Positions 16,311 to 54,568 of a stretch of DNA of 57,574 nucleotides are shown here, piece after piece (within the stretch, counting starts at the first letter, position 1; each line of letters begins with the position of its first letter). A model generated the notes under the pieces. That model searched no databases and was not told where the DNA came from. It saw nothing but the letters and a program-made list of their open reading frames with translations. Made by a program: the position numbers and the translations under genes. Source of the stretch: Prevotella sp. (GTDB taxonomy: Bacteria; Bacteroidota; Bacteroidia; Bacteroidales; Bacteroidaceae); assembly GCA_017474515.1 (NCBI GenBank), contig JAFVHN010000036.1, positions 65,819-123,392 on the forward strand, written 5' to 3'.

Positions 16311-16542
16311 TTTTGTCAAGATTTTTCAATGGTTTTTTGTACCAAAAAATAGTTTGACCGCAAATTTCGCGAAGAAATCTTCAAGATTTCGCCTCTCAAT
16401 CTTCAAGATTTCTCCCCGAAATTTGCGGCCAAACTCCGAGACATTCTCAAACCGCTGAATTTCAGCGATTTACACAACCGTCGAAAAAACCGCCCATTTT
16501 GTCAAATATTTTTACCAATTTTCACCTACCATGTTATCCACT
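16311..16542 (+). repeat. Dispersed palindromic intergenic element, copy 1
   Basis: It begins TTTTGTCAAGATTTTTCAA, then an inverted repeat with arms GTTTGACCGCAAATTTCG (16352-16369) and CGAAATTTGCGGCCAAAC (16417-16434). Between the arms lie AAATCTTCAAGATTT-type palindromes. Then come AACCGCTGAATTTCAGCGATTTAC and TTTTGTCAAATATTTTTACC. It ends near TTATCCAC, which resembles a DnaA box. Copies 2-5 share this layout. Together with the GACGCTTGGAAGCGTC repeat it fills the 556-bp gap between the esterase and Gpx-nitroreductase genes. Confidence 0.85.
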
Positions 16543-16570
16543 TCAAATGTCAGGAAAACTGGAGTTACAT

Positions 16571-16703
16571 AGGAGCCGAAAATAGGAGACGACGCTTCCA
16601 AGCGTCGGAGTAACTTTTTTGTCCCGGAAACATATAGTTGTTATTTATATAGTCCGACGCTTGGAAGCGTCGGCTCCTAATGCGTCAGCTCCTAAGCGTC
16701 GGA
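16571..16703. repeat. CCGACGCTTGGAAGCGTCGG palindrome cluster
   Basis: GACGCTTCCAAGCGTCGGA (16591-16609), TCCGACGCTTGGAAGCGTCGG (from 16653) and a partial CTCCTAAGCGTCGGA (to 16703) are copies of one self-complementary unit flanked by AGGAGCC/GGCTCCT. Another copy lies at 43098-43123. The hairpins could also weakly terminate the Gpx-nitroreductase transcript. No U-run follows. Confidence 0.65.
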
Positions 16704-16755
16704 CTATTTTGATTAAGGAAGGATTTTTACTATTGCCCCCTTGAACGTTCAAACC

Positions 16756-17895
16756 TTATTTTATATACTTCACCTTCGAGGCATCGCGAGGCTTGGCATC
16801 AGGCTGCTCGTCGGGATAACCGATGGCGATGATATAGTTCAAACGATAGTCGGCGGGAATGTCGAGACGGTCGAGGAAAAACTTTGCCTTGGCATTTGAC
16901 AAGAGGAAACGGACGGGGCCGCCCAGACAGCAGGTGCCCAACCCCATGGACTGTGCCGCCAGCATGATGTTCTCGCCCAGCAAACCGGCATCCAGCTCGC
17001 CGCCGCCCTTTGCCGGCGTGCACACGCAAATAAGGTTGGGCGCATTGCGGAACATGTTCTTGAAGTTCTTGTCGCGCTTCACCATATCGGCGTTTTCCTG
17101 CTTATAGACCTCCGTGACGTCGGCAATGAGCTTCTGGTCTTCCACCACGCGGACAATCCAGGGCTGGCCGTTCATGCCGCTTGGCGCGTTGATGCCGCAC
17201 CGCACAATGGTCTCCAGCTTCTCGTGCTCCACGGGCTTGTCGAAGTATTGGCGGATGGAGCGCCGCGACATGATGGCGCTCACCACGGGGTTCAGTTCCA
17301 TCATGACATCGGCCTCGATGCCGGCCATGGAGTGCGTGGGCTCATAACGGGCAACAACCCTGCCGTCGCGTGAGATGAGGAACTTGGTGAAATTCCATTT
17401 GATGTCAGCCTTCTTGTCGTAGTCGGCATCACGCTTGCGGAGCATCTGGTCCATCATTTTCCCCGACTGCTCGTCAAGGTTGAAACCGGCAAAGCCCTTC
17501 TGCCCCTTCAGCCAGGTGTAGAGGGGGTGCTCGCCGGGGCCGTTGACCTCTATCTTGTCGAACTGTGGGAACTCAATGTCGAAGTTGGCCGTGCAGAACT
17601 GATGTATCTCCGAAATGGTGCCCGGAGCCTGTCCGCCGAACTGGTTACAGGGGAAGTCGAGGATTTCGAGGCCCTCGCCGCGGTACTTCGCATAGAGGGC
17701 CTGCAACTCTTTGTACTGAGGGGTGAAGCCGCAACGGGTGGCGGTGTTCACGATGAGCAGCACCTTGCCCTTGTAATCGGAGAGCGACACCTCGCCGCCG
17801 ACGTCGTCCTTCACCTTCATGTCATACACTCCTTGTGCCGAGAGGGACAGCATGCACATCATGGCCATGACAGCCCCAAGAATAGTTTTTTTCAT
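16756..17895 (-). CDS. Exported glutathione peroxidase-nitroreductase fusion
   Basis: A 379-residue two-domain protein. Residues 1-20 are a signal peptide. Residues 22-200 form a glutathione-peroxidase-like (thioredoxin-fold) domain with peroxidatic Cys55 in NTATRCGFTPQY, FPCNQFG (81-87) and the WNF of the Cys/Gln/Trp/Asn site (Trp167, Asn168). From about residue 206 a nitroreductase (FMN flavoprotein) domain follows: SRRSIRQYFDKPV, NAPSGMNGQPW, and GLGTCCLGGP. The junction is clean, with no stop or frameshift, so the fusion looks genuine. It may couple flavin-driven reduction to peroxide detoxification outside the cytoplasm; that coupling is inferred. No close neighbours on its strand. Confidence 0.85.
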   Translation of the reverse strand: MKKTILGAVMAMMCMLSLSAQGVYDMKVKDDVGGEVSLSDYKGKVLLIVNTATRCGFTPQYKELQALYAKYRGEGLEILDFPCNQFGGQAPGTISEIHQFCTANFDIEFPQFDKIEVNGPGEHPLYTWLKGQKGFAGFNLDEQSGKMMDQMLRKRDADYDKKADIKWNFTKFLISRDGRVVARYEPTHSMAGIEADVMMELNPVVSAIMSRRSIRQYFDKPVEHEKLETIVRCGINAPSGMNGQPWIVRVVEDQKLIADVTEVYKQENADMVKRDKNFKNMFRNAPNLICVCTPAKGGGELDAGLLGENIMLAAQSMGLGTCCLGGPVRFLLSNAKAKFFLDRLDIPADYRLNYIIAIGYPDEQPDAKPRDASKVKYIK

Positions 17896-17979
17896 TTTCT
17901 CTGATTATGTAGTTTTGTTTTTTTTTTAACCCGCCACCCCATGCTCAGAAAGAGGTTATGTCATGGGAAGAATGGAATA

Positions 17980-18321
17980 TTAGAATATTGACACGATAAT
18001 TTTGTCGACAATTTCATCAAAATATTTCTGCTTGATACTACCGAGGCGGCGTGTTACATCGCGCTCAATATTGCCCGTTATAATCTGACACTTGACGAGG
18101 CTGGGCTTCGACAATTTGAAACCTTCAACCATCTCGTCGGTCAACGGATAAGAATATTGAGGATTGAGCCAGTCGTTCGACGTGATGAGCACAAGATAGA
18201 ACATGCCGTCCTCATCTACCTGCAAGTCATCATTGGAAACGATAATGGCTGGATGAGGCTTAAAGGTGCCATCGGGAAAGAGGAAACTGACCTCGACAAT
18301 ATCTCTCTGGTGGTACTTCAT
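17980..18321 (-). CDS. MazF/PemK-like toxin
   Basis: A 113-residue protein with the MazF/PemK layout: an N-terminal KYHQRDIVEVSFLFPDG start, HPAIIVSND (usual RPavVls), a middle strand with FYLVLITSN, and the KPSLVKCQIITGNIE segment (usual KpS.v.cdqi..). Members are endoribonucleases neutralised by a cognate antitoxin. It overlaps the upstream small gene by 4 bp (ATGA), the usual toxin-antitoxin coupling. The canonical arginine after the first strand is histidine, so activity is plausible but not certain. Confidence 0.75.
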   Translation of the reverse strand: MKYHQRDIVEVSFLFPDGTFKPHPAIIVSNDDLQVDEDGMFYLVLITSNDWLNPQYSYPLTDEMVEGFKLSKPSLVKCQIITGNIERDVTRRLGSIKQKYFDEIVDKIIVSIF

Positions 18322-18527
18322 AAATAGCGGGCGATGATGGGTGACATACTCTTGCGGGAATGCTCAAGTGCTGCTTCTCTCAACTGACGATGGGCTTCCA
18401 CCTCTTCAGGCGTCGGTTCTTGAGACGTTTCTCCGACTTTGTGGAAAAGCCCAGTGGCCAGTAGTGCGGCGAGTTTTCGCCGTGCCAGCGCATTATTTTG
18501 ATTGTATTCTAATATTACCGTACACAT
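18318..18527 (-). CDS. Putative antitoxin partner of the MazF-like toxin
   Basis: A 69-residue protein lying directly upstream of, and overlapping by 4 bp, the MazF-like gene. The N-terminus (MCTVILEYNQNNALARRKL) resembles a short beta strand plus helix seen in small Bacteroidetes antitoxins. The rest is charged and helical (TPEEVEAHRQLREAALEHS). No AbrB or RHH signature is obvious, so the assignment rests on position and size. Start ATG at 18527; promoter 30 bp upstream. Confidence 0.65.
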   Translation of the reverse strand: MCTVILEYNQNNALARRKLAALLATGLFHKVGETSQEPTPEEVEAHRQLREAALEHSRKSMSPIIARYL

Positions 18528-18556
18528 AATGCTTTATCTTTAAAACCTTTCACCTG

Positions 18557-18564
18557 CAAATGTA
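18557..18564 (-). promoter_or_regulatory. Promoter -7 box TACATTTG for the toxin-antitoxin pair
   Basis: TACATTTG on the minus strand, 29 bp before the antitoxin ATG. Confidence 0.6.
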
Positions 18565-18701
18565 CGAATTATTTATTAATTATCGCAAGTTTTGTCGTTA
18601 AACTTATGAAAAGCGGGTAAATATGCGTCGTTTCTGACAGTTTTTTCATATTTCCGTACTTACAATGATGAATTATATAGGAAAGATGAGAAAACTAAAT
18701 A

Positions 18702-18719
18702 CCATGCACTTTTGCATGG
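18702..18719 (-). terminator. Terminator hairpin after umuC
   Basis: CCATGCA and TGCATGG form a 7-bp stem around a 4-nt loop, 11 bp past the umuC stop, followed on the minus strand by TATTTAGTTTTC. Confidence 0.55.
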
Positions 18720-18730
18720 AAAACGAATTG

Positions 18731-20026
18731 TTACTTCAAGACGATGATGTCGCTCCACCGCGTCGTGGGGTTCTTGCTACGGAAGTCGTGCTTGATGGCA
18801 TTGGCGAAGACGTCGGCCTTGCCCTTGCCATCCTTGCGCGTATATTGTTGCGAGCCGAGGACGACCGTTTCGGTGCCGTTGACTTTATTGATGCGGTCGA
18901 TGACGCTGTCCAGGCGCCGCATCTTCTGGAACTGTTCGGCGTTGATGTCGAAAAGGTCTTGCTGGATAGGGCTGTCGGGGCCTATGCCCATGACCACGAC
19001 GCCTGCCTTCTTGTAGTGGTAGCCCTGACGAAAGAGACGTGTGAGCACATCGTTGGCGGCCCTCACAATGGCTATGGTGCTGCTGGAAGGGGTGATGAGC
19101 CGCGTTTCTTGAAAATTCCAATATTGCGGAAGGTCTTCGCGGAAGGCGTTGGTGTTGATAAACACGCCCACGATGGATGCCACCGTTCCCTGGCGGCGGA
19201 GTTTTTCGGCACAACGGGCGGCGTAGTTGGAAACATGAGTGCGCAATGCCGAGAGGTCGGTAATCATGCCGTTGAACGAGCGGCTGGTGCAGATGCTTTT
19301 CTTCTTGGCCATCTCTTCCACCACGATGCAGTCCTGGCCGTTCAGCTCTTTCCATGTGCGCACAATGTTGATGTTGTTGAACATTGCCCGCACCCACGAC
19401 TCGGGATGGCTGGCAAAGTCGAAGGCGGTAGTCACGCCGAGGGCCTCGAGCCGTGCAGCATAACGCCGGCCGATGCCCCACACCTCGCCAATGGGATAGA
19501 GTTTCAAGGCTTTCAACCGCTTTTCGTCGTTGTCAATCATGCAACAATGGCGATAGCCCTGGTATTTCTTGGCAAAGTGGCTGGCCATCTTCGCAAGGGT
19601 CTTGGTAGGGGCGAGGCCGATGCTGACGGGCATTCCCACACATTGCCTGATGCGTTTATGGAGCTGTTCGCCCCAGGCTTTCAGGTCCAGATGCTCCATG
19701 CCGTCGAGGCTGACGAAACACTCGTCGATGCTGTAGCGGAAATAGGCCGGAGCCTCTTTTCGGATGATTTCCACCACGCGCCCGGTCAGTTCGCCATAAA
19801 GCTCGTAGTTGCTGGAAAATACGGCAATCTTCTGGTCGGGGAATTGCTCCGACAACTGGTAAAAGGGCGTGCCGGCCTTGATGCCCATGCGCTTGGCCTC
19901 GTTCGACCGCGCAACCACGCAACCGTCGTTGTTAGAAAGCACGACGACCGGCTTGCCGTTCAAGTCGGGACGGAAGACGCGCTCACAAGAGACGTAGCAA
20001 TTGTCGCAATCGATGATGCCATACAT
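18731..20026 (-). CDS. umuC: Y-family DNA polymerase V catalytic subunit
   Basis: 431 residues from ATG at 20026 (MYGIIDCDNCYVSCERVF). Y-family palm motifs are clear: metal-binding IDCDN, VVVLSNNDGCVVARSNEAK, and YSIDECFVSLDG with the catalytic Asp-Glu pair. Helix-hairpin-helix VWGIGRRYAARLEALGV follows, then little-finger and C-terminal regions (FRQGYHYKKAGVVVMGIG). The enzyme does error-prone synthesis across lesions with the processed UmuD dimer. The gene starts 2 bp after umuD. A longer upstream reading to 20074 runs into umuD and is rejected. Confidence 0.95.
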   Translation of the reverse strand: MYGIIDCDNCYVSCERVFRPDLNGKPVVVLSNNDGCVVARSNEAKRMGIKAGTPFYQLSEQFPDQKIAVFSSNYELYGELTGRVVEIIRKEAPAYFRYSIDECFVSLDGMEHLDLKAWGEQLHKRIRQCVGMPVSIGLAPTKTLAKMASHFAKKYQGYRHCCMIDNDEKRLKALKLYPIGEVWGIGRRYAARLEALGVTTAFDFASHPESWVRAMFNNINIVRTWKELNGQDCIVVEEMAKKKSICTSRSFNGMITDLSALRTHVSNYAARCAEKLRRQGTVASIVGVFINTNAFREDLPQYWNFQETRLITPSSSTIAIVRAANDVLTRLFRQGYHYKKAGVVVMGIGPDSPIQQDLFDINAEQFQKMRRLDSVIDRINKVNGTETVVLGSQQYTRKDGKGKADVFANAIKHDFRSKNPTTRWSDIIVLK

Positions 20027-20028
20027 GG

Positions 20029-20469
20029 TTAGTACTTCTTCCAGTTCTTGATGGTCCAGACCACCACGCCCCACACCTCGAAATCGTCTTCCAAGCCGAT
20101 ATGTATGGGGTTGAAATGCCTGTTGGCAGGGCGCAGCTCGATATATCCGTCATCGCGGTGCCTCAGGTCCAGGTACTTGATGGTGAACTCCTCGTTGACA
20201 TAGGCCACCACGATGTCGCCGTCGCGCGGCTCCACCGACCGGTCGATGACGGCAATGTCGCCGTCGCAGATGCCGGCCTCTATCATCGAGTCGCCCTCCA
20301 CACGGCCGTAGAACGTGGATTCGGGATTGCGAATAAGGTCGCGGTTGAAGTCCAGGCTGTCGTGAAGATAGTCCTCGGCAGGCGACGGAAAACCGGCCTT
20401 GATACCGGGCGCCAACAACAGTTGCAGCCTTTCCCCGAAATCGCCTTTTATGATTTTTATGTCCGTCAT
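20029..20469 (-). CDS. umuD: UmuD-like S24 self-cleaving protein
   Basis: 146 residues, the usual UmuD length. It carries the S24 (LexA-like) Ser-Lys dyad: Ser61 in VEGDSMIEAGI and Lys98 in EFTIKYL. The likely self-cleavage bond is Ala25-Gly26 in PGIKAGFPSP. RecA-stimulated cleavage would yield UmuD', the accessory subunit of polymerase V. There is no LexA-type DNA-binding domain, so it is not a repressor. The gene sits 3 bp after xpt and 2 bp before umuC, clearly one operon. No SOS box was recognised. Confidence 0.93.
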   Translation of the reverse strand: MTDIKIIKGDFGERLQLLLAPGIKAGFPSPAEDYLHDSLDFNRDLIRNPESTFYGRVEGDSMIEAGICDGDIAVIDRSVEPRDGDIVVAYVNEEFTIKYLDLRHRDDGYIELRPANRHFNPIHIGLEDDFEVWGVVVWTIKNWKKY

Positions 20470-20472
20470 CTG

Positions 20473-21054
20473 TTAGTCTTCCTTAAAATGGATGACGCCG
20501 TTCTCGAGGGAATCGACAATGGCGAGCGACTCTATGCGGTTGATACCTTCCGACCGGAGCAGCTGGCGGGCATGAAGCATCTCTTTCTCAATGACAAAGC
20601 CCATGCCCTCGACCGTGGCACCCGCCTGGCAACAGAGGTCGTTGATGGCTTTGGCGGCATTGCCGTAGGCCAGAAAATCATCGATAAAGAGCACATGGTC
20701 GCCGGGCGAGAGGAACTCGCGGCTGACCAGCAGATGCGTGTCACGCTGCTTCGTAAATGAATGGACGGTGGTGAAAAAGGCATCATGCAGGGTTGACGGC
20801 AACTGCTTCTTGGCAAAAACCACGGGCAGTTCCATCAGGTAGCCCAGCATGACGGAGGGGGCGATGCCCGAGGACTCGATGGTGACGATTTTGTTCACCT
20901 GCAAATCGCTGAAGCGGCGGAGAAATTCCACCGCTATCTGCTTCATCAGGTGGATGTCCAGCTGGTGGTTGAGAAACCTGTCCACTTTCAGTATGCCGCC
21001 TTCCAAACAGATGCCGTCGGCAAGGATACGGTCGCGCAACACTTTCATTGACAT
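20473..21054 (-). CDS. xpt: Xanthine phosphoribosyltransferase
   Basis: 193 residues, matching the family length. The type-I phosphoribosyltransferase PRPP loop is VLFIDDFLAYGNAA (Asp-Asp followed by Gly); the N-terminal LRDRILADGICLEGGILKVD and IESSGIAPSVMLGY segments are typical of Xpt. It converts xanthine and PRPP to XMP for purine salvage in the cytoplasm. It is first in an operon with umuD and umuC, an unusual pairing of purine salvage with mutagenic repair. No purine riboswitch is apparent in the 58-bp leader. A second in-frame ATG lies two codons later. Confidence 0.93.
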   Translation of the reverse strand: MSMKVLRDRILADGICLEGGILKVDRFLNHQLDIHLMKQIAVEFLRRFSDLQVNKIVTIESSGIAPSVMLGYLMELPVVFAKKQLPSTLHDAFFTTVHSFTKQRDTHLLVSREFLSPGDHVLFIDDFLAYGNAAKAINDLCCQAGATVEGMGFVIEKEMLHARQLLRSEGINRIESLAIVDSLENGVIHFKED

Positions 21055-21112
21055 AACATTTTAGGGATTATTGATTTGTCGTTCAGGAAGAGACGGCAGC
21101 ACCTTTTTCAAG

Positions 21113-21676
21113 TTATTTCAGTTGCTTGCCGTCAGAGAATGCGTTGCCGACCGTTTTGCCCAACTGGATGTAGGTGTGATGAACAGGGTCGAAGGTAATC
21201 AGTTCCATCTTTTCCACATCGGGCTTGCCGTCTTCGGCCAGATAATTCTCGTCGCAGAAGATGTTGACAATTTCGGCCAGGAGATAGTAGCCGGTCTCAC
21301 TTTCGTCAATCTTCTGCTTCACGCGACATTCGAGCGTCATGGGGAACTCCTTGAACACCGGGGCATTCACATTGGGAGCTTTCTCCACGGTCCATCCGGC
21401 CTTCTCCATCTTGTCGGGCGTATTCCTGCCGCTCACTATTCCCACGTAGTCTGCCGCCACCATCGTTGCAGAAGTGGCAAAACTCACCGTGAAGTCGGGA
21501 TTATCGGCGAGGTTGTCTGTCGTGGCATGCGACCCGAGCGAGATGATGATTTCGTGCATGTCCCACTGGCCGCCCCAGGCAGCGTTCATGGCATTTGGCT
21601 TGCCGTTCTTGTCGTAAGTGCCGATAATCAGCACTGGTTGTGGAAGAATCCACGCTGATGATTTAAAGCTTTTCAT
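21113..21676 (-). CDS. Flavin reductase family protein
   Basis: 187 residues with the split-barrel FMN-binding flavin reductase fold: an N-terminal LPQPVLIIGTYDKNGKPNAM segment, AAWGGQWDMHEIIISL, a TVSFATSATMVAADYVG helix region, and C-terminal ELITFDPVHHTYIQLGKTVG. Members reduce flavins with NAD(P)H or act as FMN oxidoreductases in the cytoplasm. Physiological electron acceptor unknown. It is separated from xpt by 58 bp on the same strand; cotranscription is possible but not shown. Confidence 0.85.
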   Translation of the reverse strand: MKSFKSSAWILPQPVLIIGTYDKNGKPNAMNAAWGGQWDMHEIIISLGSHATTDNLADNPDFTVSFATSATMVAADYVGIVSGRNTPDKMEKAGWTVEKAPNVNAPVFKEFPMTLECRVKQKIDESETGYYLLAEIVNIFCDENYLAEDGKPDVEKMELITFDPVHHTYIQLGKTVGNAFSDGKQLK

Positions 21677-21734
21677 TGTTAATCGTTATTTATTTTGAAT
21701 TCACCTTCACCAATCATCCCCCCAAGGGGGGATT

Positions 21735-21800
21735 TTAAGTTTTGAGTTATTAATTATGAGCTATGGCGGCAGTAAAACTCATATCTCATAACTCATACTT
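21735..21800. repeat. Composite low-complexity intergenic repeat
   Basis: GAGTTATTAATTATGAGC, then ATGGCGGCAG (reverse of CTGCCGCCAT) and AACTCATATCTCATAACTCAT between the flavin reductase and AlkZ-like genes. Same family as the stretch at 364-482. Confidence 0.5.
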
Positions 21801-22836: not shown

Positions 22837-22885
22837 ACATTATATATTATATAAAGCACTTTCTCGGAAGCAAAGGTCACGGGCA

Positions 22886-23040: not shown

Positions 23041-23139
23041 AAAGGTTTTAAATGAAACCGAAAACACTCAAGAAACATTATTAAAGCACGCCTTAACTTT
23101 ATTTATACCCCAAGATTCGCTCGATTTGTGTTTAATCTC

Positions 23140-28127: not shown

Positions 28128-28216
28128 GCATTATTGGTGGGATTGTTATACTGTCACCGAAATGGCTGAACTCGCGGACTCATGAACTACAAAAAAGCGA
28201 GTTAAGGCGGCATTTG

Positions 28217-28430
28217 TTTTGTCAATATTTTTCAATGAAATTTTGGTCCCCAAAAGAGTTTGACCGCAAATTTCGAGGAGAAATCTTGAAGATTGAGAGG
28301 AGAAATCTTGAAGATTGAGCAGAGAAATTTGCGGTCAAACTCGGGCTGTTTTAAAAGCCACTGATTATCAACCGGTTACAAAACGGCCAAAATTTCCACG
28401 ATTTTGTCAATATTTTTTACCAATTTTTCC
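28217..28430 (+). repeat. Dispersed palindromic intergenic element, copy 2
   Basis: TTTTGTCAATATTTTTCAA; arm GTTTGACCGCAAATTTCG (28258-28275); two perfect 22-bp units GAGGAGAAATCTTGAAGATT; arm GAAATTTGCGGTCAAAC (28324-28340); CTGATTATCAACCGGTTAC; then TTTTGTCAATATTTTTTACC. It sits in a 674-bp gap with no gene; the remainder holds the 28081 hairpin and a short GGCTGAACTCGCGGACTC tract. Confidence 0.85.
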
Positions 28431-28604
28431 CCGTGTCCTTACCCGTCTTTTGGGCACAAGAAACGGGTCCGCAAGTACGGCGTAATAAGAAAGCGGCCAT
28501 TTCGACCAAACCCAGAAAACCCTTACGTCGAATAATCGGGGGCAAACGTCGAAAGACAGGGGGGCAATCGTCGAAAGTGGTTTGGAATGTGTCTCATTAT
28601 TTCA

Positions 28605-34113: not shown

Positions 34114-35886
34114 TTATTCACCCTTTTCGAGCTTGGCCTTCAGTTCTGCCAAAGCGTCGATGTCGCCGAGCGTGGTGCCGGGAGTGACGTTGTTGATGAA
34201 GGGAGCTTCCTCCTTCTTGGCCGGGCGCTTGCGCGGAGCCTTCTTCACGTCTTCCTTGGCCTCCTCGAAGGTGCGGCTGTGTGAGAGGATGATGCGCTTG
34301 GTTTCCTTCACGAACTCAATCACCTTGAAGGGCAGTTCCTCGCCAAGCTGGGCCTGCGAGCCGTCTTCCTTCACCAGGTGCTTCGGAGTGGCAAAGCCCT
34401 CGCCGCCCTCGTTAAGGGCGATGACGGCACCCTTGTCCATCATTTCGGTAATCTTGCCGGTGTGAACGCTTCCGGGAGTGTAGATGGTTTCGTAGGTGTC
34501 CCACGGGTTGTCTTCCAGCTGCTTGTGGCCGAGCGACAAACGGCGGTTCTCCTTGTCGATTTCGAGCACCACGACTTCGATTTCGGCACCCACCTGAGTG
34601 AATTCCGAGGGGTGCTTCACCTTCTTGGTCCATGAGAGGTCGCTGATGTGGATGAGTCCGTCAACGCCTTCCTCCAGCTCCACGAAGATGCCGAAGTTGG
34701 TGAAGTTACGCACGCGGGCAGTATGCTTCGAACCAACGGGGTACTTGTTCTCGATGTTCTCCCACGGATCTTCCTTCAGCTGCTTGATGCCGAGCGACAT
34801 CTTGCGCTCCTCGCGGTCGAGGGTGAGGATAACGGCCTCCACCTCGTCGCCGACGTGCATGAATTCCTGAGCGCTGCGCAGGTGCTGGCTCCACGACATC
34901 TCGCTCACGTGGATGAGTCCTTCCACACCCGGTGCAATCTCTACGAATGCTCCGTAGTCGGCAATCACAACCACCTTGCCCTTGATGTGGTCGCCAACTT
35001 TCAGGTTGGCATCGAGGGCATCCCAAGGATGCGGGGTGAGCTGCTTCAGGCCGAGGGCAATGCGGCGCTTCTCGTCGTCGAAGTCGAGAATGACCACGTT
35101 GATCTTCTGGTCGAGCTGAACCACTTCGTGCGGGTCCTGAACGCGGCCCCACGACAGGTCGGTGATGTGCACGAGTCCGTCAACACCGCCCAGGTCCACA
35201 AACACGCCGTAGGTGGTGATGTTCTTGACGGTACCCTCAAGTATCTGTCCCTTCTCGAGTTTGGAGATGATTTCTTTCTTCTGGGCCTCAAGCTCTGCCT
35301 CGATGAGAGCCTTGTGGCTGACAACAACGTTGCGGAATTCCTGGTTGATTTTCACTACCTTGAACTCCATGGTCTTGCCCACGAATACGTCGTAGTCGCG
35401 GATGGGATGCACGTCGATCTGGCTGCCGGGCAGGAAAGCCTCGATGCCAAACACATCGACAATCATGCCACCCTTGGTGCGGCACTTGATGTAGCCCTGG
35501 ATGACGTCCTCGTTCTCCAAGGCAGCGTTCACGCGGTCCCAGCTCTTGCTCAGGCGTGCCTTCTTGTGCGAAAGCAGCAGCTGGCCCTTGCGGTCCTCCT
35601 GGTTCTCAACGTAAACCTCAACCACGTCGCCAACCTTCAGGTCGGGGTTGTAGCGGAACTCGCTGGCGGGGATGATGCCGTCGCTCTTGTAGCCGATGTT
35701 CACGATGACTTCTTTCTTGTCGACGCTGATAACGGTGCCGTCGACCACCTGATGTTCGCTGACTTTGTTCAGCGTTTCGTCGTAGGCCTTTGTCAAATCT
35801 TCACGACTGGTTCCCACAACAGAGCCGTTCTCAAATTCTTCCCAGTTGAAGTCTGCCAGCGGCTCTACATTTTTAAAGTTAGACAT
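34114..35886 (-). CDS. rpsA: Ribosomal protein S1
   Basis: 590 residues, the usual Bacteroidetes S1 length. Six S1 OB-fold domains are seen in order: VDGTVISVDKKEVIVNIGYK, IQGYIKCRTKGGMIVDVFG, LEGTVKNITTYGVFVDLGG, IKGKVVVIADYGAFVEIAPG, HTARVRNFTNFGIFVELEEG and HTGKITEMMDKGAVIALNEG. The tail is Lys/Ala-rich. S1 brings mRNA to the small ribosomal subunit, which matters in this lineage because few genes here have strong Shine-Dalgarno sites. The promoter is TACCTTTG at 35960 and a strong terminator follows, so it is monocistronic. Confidence 0.96.
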   Translation of the reverse strand: MSNFKNVEPLADFNWEEFENGSVVGTSREDLTKAYDETLNKVSEHQVVDGTVISVDKKEVIVNIGYKSDGIIPASEFRYNPDLKVGDVVEVYVENQEDRKGQLLLSHKKARLSKSWDRVNAALENEDVIQGYIKCRTKGGMIVDVFGIEAFLPGSQIDVHPIRDYDVFVGKTMEFKVVKINQEFRNVVVSHKALIEAELEAQKKEIISKLEKGQILEGTVKNITTYGVFVDLGGVDGLVHITDLSWGRVQDPHEVVQLDQKINVVILDFDDEKRRIALGLKQLTPHPWDALDANLKVGDHIKGKVVVIADYGAFVEIAPGVEGLIHVSEMSWSQHLRSAQEFMHVGDEVEAVILTLDREERKMSLGIKQLKEDPWENIENKYPVGSKHTARVRNFTNFGIFVELEEGVDGLIHISDLSWTKKVKHPSEFTQVGAEIEVVVLEIDKENRRLSLGHKQLEDNPWDTYETIYTPGSVHTGKITEMMDKGAVIALNEGGEGFATPKHLVKEDGSQAQLGEELPFKVIEFVKETKRIILSHSRTFEEAKEDVKKAPRKRPAKKEEAPFINNVTPGTTLGDIDALAELKAKLEKGE

Positions 35887-36243: not shown

Positions 36244-36453
36244 AATTGGTAAAAATATTTGACAAAACAAGGTGCTTTGCATCGATTATTGTAACTTGCT
36301 GGATTTCAACGGTTTGCAAACCCCCTTCGGTTTGGCGGCAAATTTCGGGGAGAGATTTGCCAAATTTCTCCCCTCAAACTGCCAAATCTCTCCCCGAAAT
36401 TTGCGGTCAAGTCTCTTGGAGCAAACAAAAAACCATGAAAAATCTTTACAAAA
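36244..36453 (-). repeat. Dispersed palindromic intergenic element, copy 3
   Basis: Inverted relative to copy 1: AATTGGTAAAAATATTTGACAAAA, GGATTTCAACGGTTTGCAAA, arms TTTGGCGGCAAATTTCGGGG (36331-36350) and CCCCGAAATTTGCGGTCAA (36392-36410), and TGAAAAATCTTTACAAAA. The inner part is the ATTTGCCAAAT/GAGAGATTTG subtype, as in copy 4. It lies in the 860-bp gap between rpsA and the DUF4199 gene. Confidence 0.8.
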
Positions 36454-42367: not shown

Positions 42368-42669
42368 GTCACTTTGTATGAATTATTTACCAAATTGATG
42401 TTGAAAATCTGAAAGTTGCGCCGTTTTCTTGACCTAAGTCAAAGGTAGAGAGTACTTTACCACGTCCAGGCACCGCTATTACCCGAAACCTTTGGAGTAG
42501 GGACGTTTGGGAAGTGAAACATGTAGGATGAATGGTGAAAAAACGGTCGCATTCTTGGCGATAAGTAAAGCCCTAATCAGGGGCGCACGACTATGCCTTC
42601 ACATTGTTGTCTGAACTCCTATACTTCTGAACTTCCGAACTCCCAAAAGCCAGACAAACACGCGACTCA

Positions 42670-42900
42670 TTTTGTCAAGATTTTTCAACGGATTTTTGTT
42701 CTGCCAAGAGGTTTGACCGCAAATTTCGGGGAGAGAATTGGCAGTTTGAGGGGAGAGAATTGGCAAATCTCTCCCCTCAATTTGCAGTCAAACTCCGCTC
42801 GTTTTTAAACCCATTGATTATCAACGAATTACAAAACAGCCCAAATTTTGACATTTTTGTCAAAATAATTTACCAATTTCCACCTATGTTGTTATCCACC
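42670..42900 (+). repeat. Dispersed palindromic intergenic element, copy 4
   Basis: TTTTGTCAAGATTTTTCAA; arm GTTTGACCGCAAATTTCGGG (from 42711); inner GAGAGAATTGGCA units; arm TTTGCAGTCAAAC (to 42793); TTGATTATCAACGAATTAC; then TTTTGTCAAAATAATTTACC, ending near TTATCCACC. It lies in the 861-bp gap between the Lys-rich winged-helix gene and aspS. Confidence 0.85.
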
Positions 42901-42985
42901 TTCCCACCCCAAACTACGGGTTCATCTTTCCGCCTTTATCAGCCAAAAACGTTCCGCAGGTTGTCGGGGTTCAAGGGACGTAAAA

Positions 42986-43027
42986 AAGCGAATGCGGAGT
43001 CTTGATTGCAAGACTCCGCATTCGCTT
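42986..43027 (-). terminator. Terminator downstream of aspS
   Basis: AAGCGAATGCGGAGTCTTG pairs with CAAGACTCCGCATTCGCTT (19 bp) around ATTG; the minus strand continues TTTTTACG. Confidence 0.85.
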
Positions 43028-48640: not shown

Positions 48641-48664
48641 CATCACGAAGAAAGTAATATCAGT

Positions 48665-50842
48665 ATGAAAAAACAAATCGTCATGGCCGCTGCCATGCTG
48701 ATGCTGGCATGCGCACCCATACAGGCACAACAGAACATGCAACAGACCATAGGAAAGAACGACATCAAGCTGAAAAGCGACCTGATGACTCCTGAAGCCC
48801 TGTGGGCAATGGGAAGAATAGGTGCCTACGCCCCGTCGCCCGACGGAAAGCTGATTGCCGTACAGGTGGGCTACTACAGCGTGGCAGCCAACAAAAGCCA
48901 TCATGTGCTCTACATGATGAATGCCGACGGAACGGGCCAGCAGCTGCTCACGAAAAGTGACAAAAACGAAACCGACCCCGCATGGACCAACGACGGCAGG
49001 CTGGCCTTCCTCACCGAAGGGGAAATATGGACCATGAAAGCCGACGGCTCTGAACGGCAGCAGCTGTCGCGCACAGAAGGCTCCGTGGAGGGCTTCAAGT
49101 TCTCGCCCGACGGACAAAAGGTGGTCATCATCAAAAGCATTCCCTACCACGGAAGCATTGAGAAAAACCCCGACGACCTGCCAAAAGCCACCGGAAGAAT
49201 TGTCAACGACCTGATGTACCGCCACTGGGACCACTACGTGGAAAGCATTCAGCACCCCTTCGTGGCTGATGTCACCCCCAACGGCATCACCGAGGGCATG
49301 GACATCCTCGACGGCGAGCCTTACGAATGTCCCATGGAGCCCTTTGGAGGCATCGAGCAGATTGACTGGAGCACTGACTCCAAGTGCATCGCCTATACCT
49401 GCCGTAAGAAGACCGGACTGGAGTATTCCATCTCCACCGACTCCGACATATATCTTTATAATATAGGTTCGCGTACAACTATCAATTTATGCAAACCGGC
49501 CAACTACGTTGAGCCAAAGATAGAGCCCACGAAGACCATGAAGAGGCAGAGCGTGAACGCCCCCGAAAACCTTGTGAACAATCCCGGCTACGACCAGAAC
49601 CCGAAGTTCTCGCCCGACGGAAAATATGTGGCATGGATTTCCATGGCACGCAACGGCTATGAGAGCGACCGCCAGCGACTCTGCATCTACGACCTGGCCT
49701 CCGGCGAGAAACGCTACGTCACCGAGGAGTTCGACTCAAACGTCGATGACTTCGTATGGAGCGACAACAAGGATGCCATGATATACTTCATCGGCGTATG
49801 GCATGCCACCGAGAACCTCTATTCCATCAACGCCAAGGGAGAGTTGAAACAGCTCACCGACGACTGGGCCGACTTCGGCTCACTGCAGATGCTCAACAAC
49901 CGGAAGCAGATTGTGGCCGAAAGACACAGTTTCAGGGAGCCGGCCGACCTCTACGTCATCACTCCCGACTCGAAAAAGCCCGCCAAGACCACAGTGAAGC
50001 AAATCACCCAGGAAAACCGCCACATCCTCTCGCAGCTGGCCTCCCCACGCATTCAGCAGCGATGGGTGACTACCACCGACGGCAAGAACATGCTTTACTG
50101 GATTATACTGCCGCCCCATTTCGACGAAAACAAGAAATACCCCACCCTGCTTTTCTGTGAGGGAGGACCGCAAAGCCCCGTCAGCCAGTTCTGGAGCTAC
50201 AGATGGAACTTCATGATCATGGCCGCGCAGGGATATATCGTCATTGCACCCAACCGCCACGGACTGCCGGGCTTCGGCTCGGAATGGTGCGAGGAAATCT
50301 CGGGCGACTGGACGGGACAATGTATGGACGACTACCTGACCGCCATCGACGATGCCGTGGCCACACTGCCATACGTTGACGGCGACCGCCTCGGGGCCGT
50401 GGGAGCCTCTTTCGGAGGTTTTTCGGTCTATTACCTTGCCGGACACCACAACAAGCGCTTCAAGTGCTTCATAGCCCACGACGGTGCCTTCAACCTGGAA
50501 GCCATGTACACAGAGACTGAGGAAAACTGGTTCTCCAACTGGGAATACGACGATGCCTACTGGAACAAAGACCGCACGGCCAATGCCGACAAGACCTACC
50601 GTAACTCGCCGCACCTGTTTGTGGACAAATGGGACACACCCATCCTCTGCATCCACGGCGAGAAAGACTACCGCATCAACGCCACCCAGGGCATGAGCGC
50701 CTTCAATGCCGCCAAGATGAAAGGCATTGAAGCCCAGCTGCTCATCTTCCCCGACGAAAACCACTGGGTACTGAAGCCCCAGAACGGCATTCTCTGGCAG
50801 CGCACCTTCTTCAACTGGCTCGACAGATGGCTGAAGCCGTAG
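48665..50842 (+). CDS. DPP5-like S9 prolyl-oligopeptidase family peptidase
   Basis: 725 residues with a signal peptide (about 1-21, ending IQAQ). The N-terminal two thirds form a beta-propeller with repeated SPDGK-type blades (APSPDGKLIAVQVG, WTNDGRLAFLTEG, FSPDGKYVAWISM). The C-terminal alpha/beta hydrolase has Ser582 (VGASFGG), Asp668 (GEKDYRIN) and His700 (ENHWVLKPQ) as the catalytic triad. It is closest in layout to dipeptidyl peptidase 5, which trims dipeptides from peptide N-termini in the periplasm of Porphyromonas and relatives. It precedes an MFSD1-like transporter by 56 bp, suggesting joint peptide use. Confidence 0.92.
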   Translation: MKKQIVMAAAMLMLACAPIQAQQNMQQTIGKNDIKLKSDLMTPEALWAMGRIGAYAPSPDGKLIAVQVGYYSVAANKSHHVLYMMNADGTGQQLLTKSDKNETDPAWTNDGRLAFLTEGEIWTMKADGSERQQLSRTEGSVEGFKFSPDGQKVVIIKSIPYHGSIEKNPDDLPKATGRIVNDLMYRHWDHYVESIQHPFVADVTPNGITEGMDILDGEPYECPMEPFGGIEQIDWSTDSKCIAYTCRKKTGLEYSISTDSDIYLYNIGSRTTINLCKPANYVEPKIEPTKTMKRQSVNAPENLVNNPGYDQNPKFSPDGKYVAWISMARNGYESDRQRLCIYDLASGEKRYVTEEFDSNVDDFVWSDNKDAMIYFIGVWHATENLYSINAKGELKQLTDDWADFGSLQMLNNRKQIVAERHSFREPADLYVITPDSKKPAKTTVKQITQENRHILSQLASPRIQQRWVTTTDGKNMLYWIILPPHFDENKKYPTLLFCEGGPQSPVSQFWSYRWNFMIMAAQGYIVIAPNRHGLPGFGSEWCEEISGDWTGQCMDDYLTAIDDAVATLPYVDGDRLGAVGASFGGFSVYYLAGHHNKRFKCFIAHDGAFNLEAMYTETEENWFSNWEYDDAYWNKDRTANADKTYRNSPHLFVDKWDTPILCIHGEKDYRINATQGMSAFNAAKMKGIEAQLLIFPDENHWVLKPQNGILWQRTFFNWLDRWLKP

Positions 50843-50898
50843 GCCTTTTTTTCACCCCCAACCCTGTCAAGGAAAAATCATAAAATCAACAATAACAC

Positions 50899-52620
50899 AT
50901 GACACAAGCAATCCAAAAGACATTGCGCGACTCCGCCGCCATGCGGTGGACCGCCCTGCTGCTGCTGGCCCTGGCCATGTTCTGCAGCTACATCTTCATG
51001 GACATTCTCTCCCCCATCAAGGACCTCATGCAGTCCACCAGGGGATGGGACTCCACTGCCTTCGGCACCATGCAAGGCTCCGAGGTGTTCCTCAACGTGT
51101 TTGTCTTCTTCCTCATCTTTGCAGGCATCATTCTCGACAAGATGGGCGTGCGCTTCACCGCCCTCCTCTCTGGCGCAGTGATGCTCATAGGTGCCGTTAT
51201 TAAATGGTATGCCGTGAGCGAGGCCTTTATGGGCAGCGGGCTGGAAGCCTGGTTCACCAACAACCTCAACTACATTCCCGGGTTCGACGAACTGGGCGTG
51301 TCGCCGTTCTACGAGGGCATGCCCGCCTCGGCAAAGTTTGCAGCCTGCGGATTCATGATTTTCGGCTGCGGATGCGAAATGGCTGGCATCACCGTGAGCC
51401 GCGGTATCGTGAAATGGTTCAAGGGCCGCGAAATGGCACTCGCCATGGGTTCCGAAATGGCACTCGCCCGCCTCGGCGTGGCCACCTGCATGATTTTCTC
51501 GCCCTTCTTCGCACGACTGGGTGGAAACGTCAGCGTGTCGCGTGCCGTCGCCTTCGGTGTGGTGCTCATGTGCATTGCCCTCATCATGTTCGTGGTCTAT
51601 TTCTTCATGGACAAAAAACTCGACGCCCAGACCGGCGAGGCTGAGGAAAAAGACGACCCGTTCAAGGTTTCCGACATCGGCAAGATTCTCAGCGACAGCG
51701 GTTTCTGGCTCGTTGCCCTGCTGTGCGTGCTCTACTATTCGGCCATCTTCCCCTTCCAGAAGTACGCCGTCAACATGCTACAGTGCAACCTTACGCTCAC
51801 ACCTCCGGCCGCTGACTCCTTCTGGGCCGGCAGTTCGGTGACCATAGTGCAGTATATTATCATGCTGGTGGTGGCTGCCGCAGGTTTTGCCAGCAACTTC
51901 CAGAAAAAAGCCAATGCCAAATACTGCCTGCTGGGAATCTCCATCATTGCACTTGTCATTTACTGCTACATGGGCTTCATGCGGCAGTCGGCCGAAAGCA
52001 TCTTCGCCGTATTCCCCCTGCTTGCAGTGCTCATCACGCCCATCCTCGGCAGCTATGTTGACCATAAGGGCAAAGCAGCCTCCATGCTCGTGCTGGGCTC
52101 GCTGCTCCTCATTGCCTGCCACCTGACCTTCGCCTTCATCCTGCCCGCCTTCAAGGGCAATGCCGTGGGCGGAGTCGCCATCGCCTACATCACCATCCTG
52201 GTGCTCGGCGCATCGTTCTCGCTCGTCCCTGCCTCGCTCTGGCCCAGCGTGCCCAAGCTGGTGGAGCAGAAGACCATCGGGTCGGCCTACGCCCTCATCT
52301 TCTGGATTCAGAACATCGGACTGTGGCTCTTCCCACTGCTCATCGGCAAGGTGCTCGACAAGACCAACCCCGAATTGGTGGCAAAGGTGAATGCCGTGAA
52401 GGAGTCCACCAAGACGGCCGTGGACGCAGGCACCATGACCGTTGAAGAGGCACAGGCACAGGTGACGGCCATCTCAGAGCAGGTGGCGGTGTCGTTCGAC
52501 TACACCTGGCCGCTGGTCATGCTGGCAAGCCTCGGTGTGGCAGCACTCATCCTCGGGCTTATCCTCAAGGTGGTGGACCGCAAGAAAGGCCTCGGACTGG
52601 AACTGCCCAACATCAAGTAA
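50899..52620 (+). CDS. MFS transporter, MFSD1-like
   Basis: 573 residues with twelve hydrophobic helices in two halves joined by a charged loop (KKLDAQTGEAEEKDDPFKV). Signatures resemble the MFSD1 branch, whose animal member exports dipeptides from lysosomes: CSYIFMDILSPIKDLMQS in helix 1, GITVSRGIVKWFKGREMALAMG after helix 5, and SLVPASLWPSVPKLV near helix 10. A long insert (about 490-530, KVNAVKESTKTAVDAGTM) precedes the last helix. It lies directly after the DPP5-like peptidase, so dipeptide uptake is an attractive guess; the substrate is not proven. Confidence 0.88.
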   Translation: MTQAIQKTLRDSAAMRWTALLLLALAMFCSYIFMDILSPIKDLMQSTRGWDSTAFGTMQGSEVFLNVFVFFLIFAGIILDKMGVRFTALLSGAVMLIGAVIKWYAVSEAFMGSGLEAWFTNNLNYIPGFDELGVSPFYEGMPASAKFAACGFMIFGCGCEMAGITVSRGIVKWFKGREMALAMGSEMALARLGVATCMIFSPFFARLGGNVSVSRAVAFGVVLMCIALIMFVVYFFMDKKLDAQTGEAEEKDDPFKVSDIGKILSDSGFWLVALLCVLYYSAIFPFQKYAVNMLQCNLTLTPPAADSFWAGSSVTIVQYIIMLVVAAAGFASNFQKKANAKYCLLGISIIALVIYCYMGFMRQSAESIFAVFPLLAVLITPILGSYVDHKGKAASMLVLGSLLLIACHLTFAFILPAFKGNAVGGVAIAYITILVLGASFSLVPASLWPSVPKLVEQKTIGSAYALIFWIQNIGLWLFPLLIGKVLDKTNPELVAKVNAVKESTKTAVDAGTMTVEEAQAQVTAISEQVAVSFDYTWPLVMLASLGVAALILGLILKVVDRKKGLGLELPNIK

Positions 52621-52654
52621 ACACACACGCCGGCACGCCTATGGCCCACCCCCA

Positions 52655-52800
52655 GCCCCTAATGGCCCCCCTTGGGGGGAAGATGTAGGCGGTTTCCTCT
52701 CCCCTCCTACGGGAGGGGCGGGGGTGGACCCCTCCCCCCCCTTGGGGGGATTAGAGGGGGCTACTTATTCTTCACTCTTCACTTTTCACTCTTCACTTAA
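52655..52800. repeat. C/G-run palindromes and low-complexity repeat
   Basis: CCCCCCTTGGGGGGAAGATG, CTCCCCTCCTACGGGAGGGG, CCCCCCCTTGGGGGGATTAG, then TTCACTCTTCACTTTTCAC. The G/C motif matches 29120-29175. It could stop transcription from the MFS gene but has no clean U-run. Confidence 0.55.
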
Positions 52801-52849
52801 AAGAGTCTACTCTATTTATATCAATCAACCATATTAAAAAGAAAGAAAA

Positions 52850-54097
52850 ATGACAATCAACGAATTCAATTTTGCCGGTAAAAAGGCAATCGTGCGCGTT
52901 GACTTCAACGTGCCCCTCGACGAAAACGGAAACGTCACCGACGACACCCGCATCCGCGGCGCCCTGCCCACGCTGAAGAAAATCCTCAACGACGGCGGCG
53001 CAGTCATCATGATGAGCCACATGGGCAAGCCCAAAGGCAAGGTGAACCCCAAGTTCAGCCTCTCGCAGATTGTGAAACCCGTGAGCGAAGCACTCGGCGT
53101 GGACGTGAAGTTCGCACCCGACTGCGCCAACGCCAGTGCTGAAGCCGCTGAGCTGAAGCCCGGAGAGGCACTGCTCCTTGAAAACCTCCGCTTCTATGCC
53201 GAAGAAGAGGGGAAGCCCGTGGGCGTGGAAAAAGGCACTCCCGAATACGACGAGGCTAAGAAGGCCATGAAGAAGAGCCAAAAGGAATTTGCAAAGAAAC
53301 TGGCCTCCTACGCCGACGCATACGTCATGGACGCCTTCGGCACCGCTCACCGCAAGCACGCCTCCACCGCCGTCATCGACGAGTTCTTCGATGCCGACCA
53401 CCGCATGCTCGGCTTCCTCATGGAAAAAGAGGTGGCTGCCGTGGACAACATCCTCAGCAACATCAAGCGCCCCTTCACTGCCATCATGGGCGGAAGCAAG
53501 GTTTCCACGAAAATCGGTATCATCGAGAACCTGCTCGGAAAGGTTGACAACCTCATCCTCTGCGGCGGCATGACCTACACCTTCGCAAAGGCTCAGGGCG
53601 GCGAAATCGGAAACTCCATCGTGGAGCTCGACAAGCTCGACGTGGCCCTCGACGTCATCAAGAAAGCCAAGGAAAACGGTGTGAACCTCGTGCTCGGCAC
53701 CGACTGCATCGCCGCCGACAAGTTTGCCAACGATGCCAACACACAGGTGGTGCCCGCCAACGCCATTCCCGAAGGATGGGAAGGACTGGACGCCGGTCCC
53801 GAAACACGCAAGGCCTTCGCCGCTGCCATCGAAGACGCAAAGACCATCCTGTGGAACGGTCCTGCAGGCGTGTTCGAGTTCGACAACTTCATCGGTGGCT
53901 CCAAAGCCATCGCCGATGCCATTGCCAAGGCAACTGCAAACGGTGCCTTCTCGCTCATCGGCGGAGGCGACAGCGTGGCTTGCATCAACAAGTTCGGCAT
54001 GGCCGACCAGGTGAGCTATATCTCCACCGGCGGCGGAGCACTGCTCGAAGCCATTGAGGGCAAGGAACTGCCCGGCGTGGCAGCCATGAAAGCATAA
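52850..54097 (+). CDS. pgk: Phosphoglycerate kinase
   Basis: 415 residues, the bacterial length. Signatures: [20 protein letters not shown] (3-phosphoglycerate site), HMGKPKG, a conserved [14 protein letters not shown] block, [12 protein letters not shown], and [13 protein letters not shown] in the ADP/ATP site, with a C-terminal [11 protein letters not shown] loop. It moves a phosphate from 1,3-bisphosphoglycerate to ADP in glycolysis. No clear -7 box lies before it; a strong terminator follows at 54132, so it is the last gene of its unit. Confidence 0.97.
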
Positions 54098-54131
54098 GGG
54101 GTTTAAATGCCTTTCAAGAAACACAGTTCAA

Positions 54132-54161
54132 GCGGCTTCGCCAACGTCACGGCGAAGCCGC
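54132..54161 (+). terminator. Terminator of pgk
   Basis: GCGGCTTCGCC pairs with GGCGAAGCCGC around an 8-nt loop; TTTTCTTTT follows. Confidence 0.88.
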
Positions 54162-54361
54162 TTTTCTTTTCATCCCCCACCCTTCTCTTTCCCGCAAATA
54201 TATTTTTATTGAAGATATTGGTGTCCTATAAAAACAGCCCAAAAGGGCAACAGGCAAAGACTATGCCATCAGTAACGCCTGAACTCCCGAATTACTTATC
54301 GAGCCATAAACAGGAAAAAAAAGCGGCCCCTCAGACATGGATAGCGCACCGGCTATTTTTT

Positions 54362-54568
54362 GATGAAAAATCTTGACAAAACCGCCGTTTTTGCGCTCGG
54401 TTTGTAAACCACTGAAATTCAGCGGTTTGTAAATCGCCATTGGTTTGACCGCAAATTTCGGGTTGAAATCTTGAAGATTGAGAGGAGAAATCTTGAAGTT
54501 TGAGGTGAGAAAATTGCAGTCAAACTTTTCCGACTGTTTTAAAAACGATGAAAAATCTTGACAAAATT
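54362..54568 (-). repeat. Dispersed palindromic intergenic element, copy 5
   Basis: TGAAAAATCTTGACAAAA at both ends; AACCACTGAAATTCAGCGG; arm GTTTGACCGCAAATTTCGG (from 54443); GAAATCTTGAAGATTGAGAG and a decayed second unit; arm AAAATTGCAGTCAAAC (54510-54525). It lies in the 958-bp gene-poor gap after pgk, together with the remnants at 54745-55065. Confidence 0.8.

What the first reader, a model, noticed from the sequence alone, without database searches (positions are those of the whole stretch)
16311..54568. A family of five dispersed palindromic intergenic elements with conserved arms and interchangeable cores
Five gene-free sites (16311-16542, 28217-28430, 36244-36453, 42670-42900, 54362-54568) share one architecture: TTTTGTCAAnATTTTTCA, an inverted repeat with arms GTTTGACCGCAAATTTCG/CGAAATTTGCGGTCAAAC, an AACCGCTGATTATCAACGGTTTAC-like block and a second TTTTGTCAAAnATTTTTACC. 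The arms are conserved, but the core between them has two subtypes (GAGAAATCTTGAAGATTG in copies 1, 2 and 5; GAGAGAATTGGCA/ATTTGCC in copies 3 and 4), while pairing is kept. Copies 1 and 4 end at TTATCCAC. Copies 3 and 5 are inverted. No transposase is near. This resembles a non-autonomous, MITE- or REP-like element or a structured RNA/protein-binding site. I know of no named family; that is not proof of novelty.
Basis: partly seen in the sequence, partly recalled or inferred. Interest (0 to 1): 0.75.

Follow-up and report, generated by a model that had tools for sequence, protein, structure and literature searches.

The report
Evenly spaced intergenic palindrome repeat family
A bacterium carries roughly 250 copies of a short non-coding DNA element with shared ends, interchangeable palindromic middles, a fixed length and surprisingly even spacing; it is built like a little-studied repeat that appears to be the one already named in Prevotella intermedia, but with its own sequence.

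Summary
The five sites are real copies of one non-coding intergenic family. The genome has 310 sites matching the end motif (reversed control 0) and 66 elements in 948 kb read fully, about 245 copies by extrapolation. Each copy has two direct repeats (TTTTGTCAAnATTTTT), 185 or 186 bp apart in 67 of 72 copies, around a palindrome with a 22-bp periodic core and an IHF-like block. In 50 aligned copies, pairs differ at about 55 bases but only 0.6 gap columns. None of 56 spacings is under 4 kb, against 12-14 expected. The arm sequence is private to this genome (4 of 397 congeners have one stray hit), but frame parts recur with other interiors in some congeners. One such repeat is, by inference, PINSR, named in Prevotella intermedia, so "no named family" needs correcting. 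RAYT/REP and classical MITE readings were tested and are not supported. Best reading: a PINSR-type non-autonomous mobile element, moved in trans by an unidentified recombinase, with near-neighbour exclusion. A chromosome-architecture role remains open.

The parts
16302..16547 (+). element copy 1: DR1 16311-16328, left arm 16352-16368, right arm 16418-16434, block 16456-16473, DR2 16497-16516; core inverted
   Evidence: nhmmer 196.0 bits; motif positions
28210..28451 (+). element copy 2: DR1 28217-28234, arms 28258-28274 / 28324-28340, block 28362-28379, DR2 28402-28421
   Evidence: nhmmer 205.1 bits
36216..36457 (-). element copy 3, upstream of the rpsA-like gene 34114-35886(-): DR1 36436-36453, arms 36396-36412 / 36330-36346, block 36291-36308, DR2 36248-36267
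   Evidence: nhmmer 219.5 bits; S1 domains in the neighbour
42666..42902 (+). element copy 4: DR1 42670-42687, arms 42711-42727 / 42777-42793, block 42815-42832, DR2 42855-42874
   Evidence: nhmmer 233.2 bits; RNA fold z -5.7
54329..54575 (-). element copy 5, downstream of the phosphoglycerate kinase gene 52850-54097(+): DR1 54549-54566, arms 54509-54525 / 54443-54459, block 54404-54421, DR2 54362-54381; core inverted
   Evidence: nhmmer 163.6 bits; PF00162

Best explanation
A species-private family of PINSR-type elements: short non-coding, non-autonomous mobile DNA. Shown: two direct end repeats (RTTTTGTCAAnATTTTT) at a fixed distance; between them a palindrome whose core repeats every 22 bp, and a conserved block fitting the IHF consensus; intergenic placement in both orientations; minimum spacing between copies; the same kind of parts with unrelated interiors in other species of the genus. 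Inferred: a recombinase acting in trans (not identified) binds the two end repeats, the IHF-like block and the palindrome fold the roughly 186-bp DNA so that both ends fit one complex (hence the fixed length with freely varying spacer sequence), copies spread within the species, insertions in genes are lost, and a near-neighbour exclusion of the target-immunity kind keeps new copies from landing within a few kb of old ones.
For: Copy number and control: 310 DR sites against 0; 66 elements in 947.8 kb. Intergenic: of 77 elements with called genes on both sides (5 of 82 dropped for want of one), none lies inside a gene and 3 touch a gene end by 1-17 bp (own simple gene caller). Fixed geometry: DR1-DR2 185/186 bp in 67 of the 72 copies with both DRs recognisable, of 82; in those 67, spacers are 46-57% identical and DR1 95% (DR1 was a condition of inclusion); 55.5 substitutions but 0.60 gap columns per pair in 50 near full-length copies; non-coding. 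22-bp core period: autocorrelation 0.48 here and 0.65 in the PINSR-type repeat. Pairing kept: covariation 0.096 against 0.076 shuffled and 0.03-0.06 slid. IHF-like block: 41 of 50 copies with at most 1 mismatch against 39 of 5000 random segments (consensus recalled). Shared ends, private interior. Spacing: 0 of 56 under 4 kb, CV 0.56, beyond all 5000 simulations in each of three null schemes; 26 further spacings on 17 other contigs, minimum 4.7 kb. Close neighbours (<8 kb) are 8 direct and 7 inverted, so loss of direct pairs by recombination does not explain the gap.
Against: No recombinase or autonomous partner found: 153 of 167 DR-like motifs (at most 2 mismatches) in the stretches read lie within or beside elements, and the surroundings of the 14 others were not scanned for transposase genes. 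No target-site duplication and no empty-site allele shown (the one site tried had no conserved synteny). Copies are diverged (mean 70% identity between DRs), and published PINSR positions are about three-quarters shared between two strains, so present mobility is doubtful. Over-dispersion is weaker in the PINSR-type genome (P 0.003-0.008 for <3.5 kb, but 0.03-0.14 for <2.5 kb and 0.06-0.11 for the CV; minimum 1.36 kb; one gap holds two) and modest in G451 (Poisson P 0.015). The consensus alignment with the PINSR-type repeat is weak overall (18 of 1000 shuffles score as high); the link rests on the end motifs and the 22-bp period.
Confidence: 0.5

Rival explanations
1. Chromosome-architecture element: the evenly spaced sites bind a nucleoid or topology complex (IHF/HU-like protein at the block, another factor at the DRs) and divide the chromosome into domains of about 13 kb; copies are kept by host selection.
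For: Even spacing, nearly indel-free geometry with free spacer sequence, IHF-like block, 22-bp (two-turn) period, placement in intergenic gaps with 30 of 77 divergent.
Against: Arm sequence absent from 397 congeners bar 4 stray hits; interiors differ between the species looked at; most congeners show no or few sites with this genome's end motif (which however also misses the PINSR-type genome G476, so it undercounts the frame); orientation unrelated to GC skew (41 of 82); spacing weaker in the PINSR-type genome.
Confidence: 0.25
2. REP/BIME elements mobilised by a RAYT (Y1 transposase).
For: Palindromic, intergenic, hundreds of copies; the genome does have one Y1_Tnp match.
Against: That gene (L198:1354-1899) is flanked by GTAGGGACATAC...GTATGTCC palindromes and the element profile has no hit in that 3.3-kb locus at E<=1; no GTAG motif beside the palindrome in the element consensus; two of the six genomes searched, both with DR-motif sites (G467, G494), have no Y1_Tnp match.
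Confidence: 0.03
3. RNA-level element: a transcribed hairpin acting in untranslated regions, as attenuator, terminator or stability element.
For: Strong folds (z -5.0 to -9.6 for the five copies) and kept pairing.
Against: Both orientations; 30 of 77 in divergent gaps, where a terminator or 3' stabiliser is not expected; no Rfam match in the window; the DR and spacer-length constraint lies outside the hairpin.
Confidence: 0.1
4. Classical MITE of a DDE insertion sequence.
For: Small, AT-rich (38% against 54% GC), non-coding, many copies.
Against: Ends are direct, not inverted, repeats; no target-site duplication in 72 copies; only 14 of 167 DR-like motifs lie outside elements and no partner was recognised there, though their surroundings were not scanned for genes.
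Confidence: 0.07

Closest known systems
[quoted passage not shown] Naito et al., PMC4755523)
   Same: Intergenic, non-coding, 177-184 copies, no terminal inverted repeats, lineage-specific (paper, section 3.4). In the genome that is by inference P. intermedia (G476) the repeat begins TTTTGTAAAGATAATTC and ends TTGTGAAAAATATTTACAC, has a 171-bp frame in 24 of 26 copies, a 22-bp core period and a TGAT...GTTA block in the same order.
   Different: The interior sequence is unrelated at BLAST level; frame 185/186 and not 171 bp; long-arm palindrome here. The passages read mention no direct end repeats, modules, IHF-like block or spacing.
BrickBuilt MITE of Porphyromonas gingivalis (PMC4596501; abstract and passages)
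   Same: Bacteroidales intergenic repeat with an internal tandem repeat of nearly the same unit length (23 nt).
   Different: 19 copies, variable number of units, terminal inverted repeats almost identical to those of MITEPgRS; here the frame length is fixed and the ends are direct repeats.
REP/BIME with RAYT
   Same: Palindromic, intergenic, high copy; BIMEs bind IHF and gyrase (recalled).
   Different: No GTAG signature; the genome's RAYT-like gene has its own separate palindromes.
ERIC/RU-1, Correia, YPAL/RU-2 small mobile sequences (PMC2229807, passages)
   Same: Similar size, intergenic; Correia elements carry an IHF site.
   Different: Most such elements have terminal inverted repeats and target-site duplications; neither was found here.

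Membership tests
PINSR | 188-bp consensus sequence (Fig. 4A) | tested here: not met
   The consensus itself was not available. Its inferred representative in G476 gives no BLAST match in this genome; only end motifs and core period are shared. So PINSR-type, not PINSR.
PINSR | intergenic, multi-copy, non-coding, no terminal inverted repeats | tested here: met
PINSR | restricted to the P. intermedia/nigrescens group | not testable with these tools
MITE (DDE insertion-sequence derived) | terminal inverted repeats | tested here: not met
   Ends are direct repeats of each other.
MITE (DDE insertion-sequence derived) | target-site duplication | tested here: not met
   Over the offsets scanned (-30 to +3 at the left end, +5 to +74 at the right) the best 5-mer coincidence is 7 of 72.
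REP / RAYT | GTAG-type tetranucleotide next to the palindrome; RAYT flanked by the same palindromes | tested here: not met
BrickBuilt | 23-nt tandem repeat with variable copy number between leader and tail with TIRs | tested here: not met
   22-bp period, but fixed frame length and no TIRs.
Rfam RNA families | match at gathering score | tested here: not met
   no match in the window

The most novel reading that the evidence does not exclude
A genus-wide class of nucleoprotein elements with one conserved frame (direct end repeats, IHF-like site, 22-bp-phased core, fixed length) and species-private interiors, spaced regularly by selection so that they partition the chromosome into domains of roughly 10-15 kb: an in-built set of chromosome spacers.
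Probability: 0.2. Interest if true: 0.85.

Novelty: new variant of a known kind. Interest (0 to 1): 0.6.

Why it matters
High-copy intergenic repeats are usually treated as debris. Here the sequence between conserved blocks drifts freely while its length does not, and the copies keep their distance from each other. Those are signs of an assembled protein-DNA complex and of either target immunity or a chromosome-scale role. Recognising that PINSR and this family probably share one frame gives an orphan repeat relatives with unlike interiors, and makes both readings testable: find what binds TTTTGTCAAnATTTTT.

Tried and rejected
RAYT/REP origin: rejected. Classical MITE with TIR and TSD: not met. 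Protein-coding origin: of 67 copies, five frames are open across the element in 0, 0, 0, 1 and 2, and the sixth in 23. Rfam: none in the window. Loss of close direct copies by recombination: direct and inverted close neighbours are about equal, 8 and 7. Replication-strand orientation: none, 41 of 82. Element-free stretches as mobile islands: gene lists of three of the eight stretches over 24 kb read by eye as a polysaccharide cluster (GC 0.457) and ordinary genes; not searched against families.

Transposase next to stray DR motifs in congeners: none recognised by eye among the longest ORFs of 12 loci. Short BLAST hits of copy 4 in congener G012 and in two other genomes of the order turned out to be the block or less. 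Empty site by orthologous gap: yccF matched in 17 relatives besides the own genome, but its convergent neighbour was in none of the 24 other loci fetched, which reach at most 1.5 kb each way. Flank pairs of elements elsewhere in the own stretches: only short repeat matches. Whole-consensus alignment with the PINSR-type repeat: weak. Literature searches for the motif string, for REP or interspersed repeats in Prevotella, and for even spacing showed nothing on this family in the rows listed; PINSR came from the listing, and a search for its name found only that paper. I did not build a covariance model; a profile HMM served instead.
Full report
The observation. The five sites were read and aligned. 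Each has, in the same order, a direct repeat DR1 (TTTTGTCAAnATTTTTCA), a long palindrome with arms GTTTGACCGCAAATTTCG... / ...CGAAATTTGCGGTCAAAC, a TGAnnnTCA-type block and a second direct repeat DR2 (TTTTGTCAAnnTTTTTACC type). Copies 3 and 5 lie on the minus strand. The DR1-DR2 distances are 186, 185, 186, 185 and 185 bp. The window has no Rfam match and no tRNA. Neighbours tested by Pfam include a carboxylesterase, a glutathione peroxidase/nitroreductase, an S1-domain (rpsA-like) protein, phosphoglycerate kinase and an aldo/keto reductase; 7 of 9 proteins had a match.

Copy number. With copy 4 as query the own genome (3.51 Mb, 118 contigs, 88% complete) gives 79 BLAST matches, only 40 of 259 candidates having been scored. 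The DR1 pattern with at most one mismatch has 158 + 152 sites and 0 for the reversed control; some copies carry it twice. A profile built from 31 copies finds 66 elements above 50 bits in ten contigs read in full, 947.8 kb, which extrapolates to about 245 in the genome.

Anatomy. Over 50 copies (alignment A2) the cells of the palindrome stem are 87.7% standard pairs. The covariation score of the structure tested is 0.096 against 0.076 in shuffles (0 of 500 as high) and 0.03-0.06 with slid partners; the number of pairs with double changes and of pair types is not above shuffles. Folding z-scores of the five window copies run from -5.0 to -9.6. Template switching in palindromes can also restore arms, so covariation does not prove an RNA or cruciform function (inference). 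The core has a clear 22-bp period (autocorrelation 0.48 at 22, other lags at most 0.38), sits inverted in some copies, and in one copy is replaced by unrelated units of about the same length (C94:113465). The block fits the IHF consensus WATCAAnnnnTTR (recalled) with at most 1 mismatch in 41 of 50 copies, against 39 of 5000 random window segments. The IHF label is an inference; the block is also simply conserved and AT-rich.

Fixed length. In 72 copies with both DRs recognisable (of 82 examined) the DR1-DR2 distance is 185 bp in 37, 186 in 30 and other in 5. Within the 67, the spacers are 46-57% identical between copies while DR1, a condition of inclusion, is 95% identical. In the 50 aligned copies, chosen as near full-length hits, pairs differ by 55.5 substitutions and 0.60 gap columns on average, almost all gaps being one shared one-base difference. 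The element is non-coding. Sequence that drifts at constant length is what one expects of spacers in a protein-DNA complex (inference).

Position and spacing. With a simple gene caller of my own (not validated; one called gap of 5.6 kb shows that it misses genes), 77 of 82 elements have genes called on both sides: 30 in divergent, 35 in co-directional and 12 in convergent gaps, none inside a gene, 3 touching a gene end by 1-17 bp. Among all 201 called gaps of at least 250 bp, element-bearing ones included, 63 are divergent, 110 co-directional and 28 convergent, so the excess of divergent gaps partly reflects gap size. No gap in the ten contigs holds two. Their 56 spacings have a minimum of 4.4 kb and CV 0.56. 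Random placement in intergenic gaps, under three schemes of 5000 runs each, gives on average 12-14 spacings under 4 kb and CV 0.87-0.90, and no run reaches the observed values. On 17 other contigs, from the truncated listings spacings have a minimum of 4.7 kb against 8.3 expected under 4.4 kb; copies with a poor DR1 are missed there, and four later contigs with two BLAST hits each were not entered. Close neighbours are direct and inverted about equally (8 and 7 under 8 kb). In other species the effect is weaker: G451, 27 spacings, none under 12 kb, CV 0.71, Poisson P 0.015; the PINSR-type genome G476, 30 elements in 240 kb, P 0.003-0.008 for spacings under 3.5 kb, but 0.03-0.14 for those under 2.5 kb, 0.06-0.11 for the CV, a minimum of 1.36 kb and one gap with two.

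Relatives. The arm 17-mer at one mismatch has 324 hits here (the palindrome counts twice), single hits in 4 of 397 congeners, fewer than the reversed control, and 1-2 hits in 12 of 392 other genomes of the order, about the level of that control. The DR pattern at one mismatch occurs in 45 of 199 congeners, most with one to three sites; the highest counts are 23, 22, 21, 14 and 7 (G458, G451, G570, G494, G467), each largely with its own variant except G570, which is mixed. That scan finds nothing in G476, which has hundreds of first-look candidates of the PINSR-type repeat, so it undercounts the frame. Aligned loci show the same kind of parts with unrelated interiors: G467 and G458, where only one DR was seen, beside a palindrome and a TGATnATCAA-type block, and G451, whose roughly 600-bp element has both DRs, 390/391 bp apart in 17 of 20 copies, and at least 40 copies found by BLAST. 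G494 shows the motif, but a full frame was not established.

PINSR. The Prevotella literature search led to Naito et al. (PMC4755523; I read the outline with abstract, found passages, and section 3.4). They describe a 188-bp intergenic repeat with 177 and 184 copies in two P. [quoted passage not shown] To find its sequence I searched 398 congeners (own genome included) for tnaA: 65 match, none over the family's curated cut-off. Reading downstream of three of the 30 loci fetched, G476 (2.7 Mb, two contigs) carries there a repeat with 286 first-look candidates in its genome and 162 in G728, 40 scored in each, and no match in the own genome. That this is PINSR, and G476 P. intermedia, is inferred from size, copy number, location and genome form; the published consensus was not seen. 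Its 20-copy alignment begins TTTTGTAAAGATAATTC, ends TTGTGAAAAATATTTACAC, has a TGAT...GTTA block, a 22-bp core period (0.65) and a 171-bp DR distance in 24 of 26 near full-length copies. Our DR1 at up to 3 mismatches occurs 18 times in 240 kb of G476, 18 of 18 at these repeats, of which about 30 lie there; the other end is within 5-7 mismatches of our 20-base DR2 in 20 of 20 copies, against 1% of random segments at 7 or fewer. The full consensus alignment is weak (18 of 1000 shuffles as high). So the two share a frame, not a sequence.

Mechanism. RAYT is not supported as mobiliser, and DDE-MITE features are not met. I favour a non-autonomous mobile element acted on in trans at its direct end repeats, with near-neighbour exclusion (0.5), over a host chromosome-architecture element (0.25). 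Shared ends with private interiors and lineage-limited amplification favour mobility; fixed geometry fits both; even spacing fits target immunity or domain spacing. No recombinase was found, so the central step is inferred.

Taxon. No call names the window's organism. That the genus is Prevotella in the GTDB sense is inferred from the large order and genus sizes and from the PINSR-bearing congener.

Noticed in passing
L198:1354-1899 (own genome, contig C24): A 181-aa Y1 transposase (RAYT-like) flanked on both sides by GTAGGGACATAC...GTATGTCC palindromes: an ordinary RAYT with its own REP family in the same genome.
   Followed up: partly
window 16580-16700: A different inverted repeat (GACGCTTCCAAGCGTCGG / CCGACGCTTGGAAGCGTC) right beside copy 1; similar sequence also flanks L009, L017, L028 and L029, so a second dispersed palindromic family probably exists.
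   Followed up: no
left flank of about half the aligned copies, e.g. L003, L004, L007, L014, L019: A recurrent left extension of the type TTTATCATTTAGCGAAGCGC at near-constant distance before DR1, perhaps an optional module or another repeat.
   Followed up: partly
L276-L283 (congener G012): Arrays of a few tandem 22-bp mini-hairpin units (AAAAGCATAGCTTTTACCTTGC type) without a clear DR frame: possibly the raw material of the cores.
   Followed up: partly
own genome C94:113465-113701 (within L141): An element whose palindrome core is replaced by three units of the GAGTTTCATTGAAGAAAACTC type of about 22 bp while end repeats and block are kept.
   Followed up: no
window 42982-43025: Perfect inverted repeat GCGAATGCGGAGTCTTG / CAAGACTCCGCATTCGC with a run of A before it on the plus strand, so possibly an intrinsic terminator read on the minus strand.
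   Followed up: no
own genome C94:979-34388: A 33-kb element-free stretch of lower GC (0.457) that reads by eye as a surface-polysaccharide gene cluster.
   Followed up: partly
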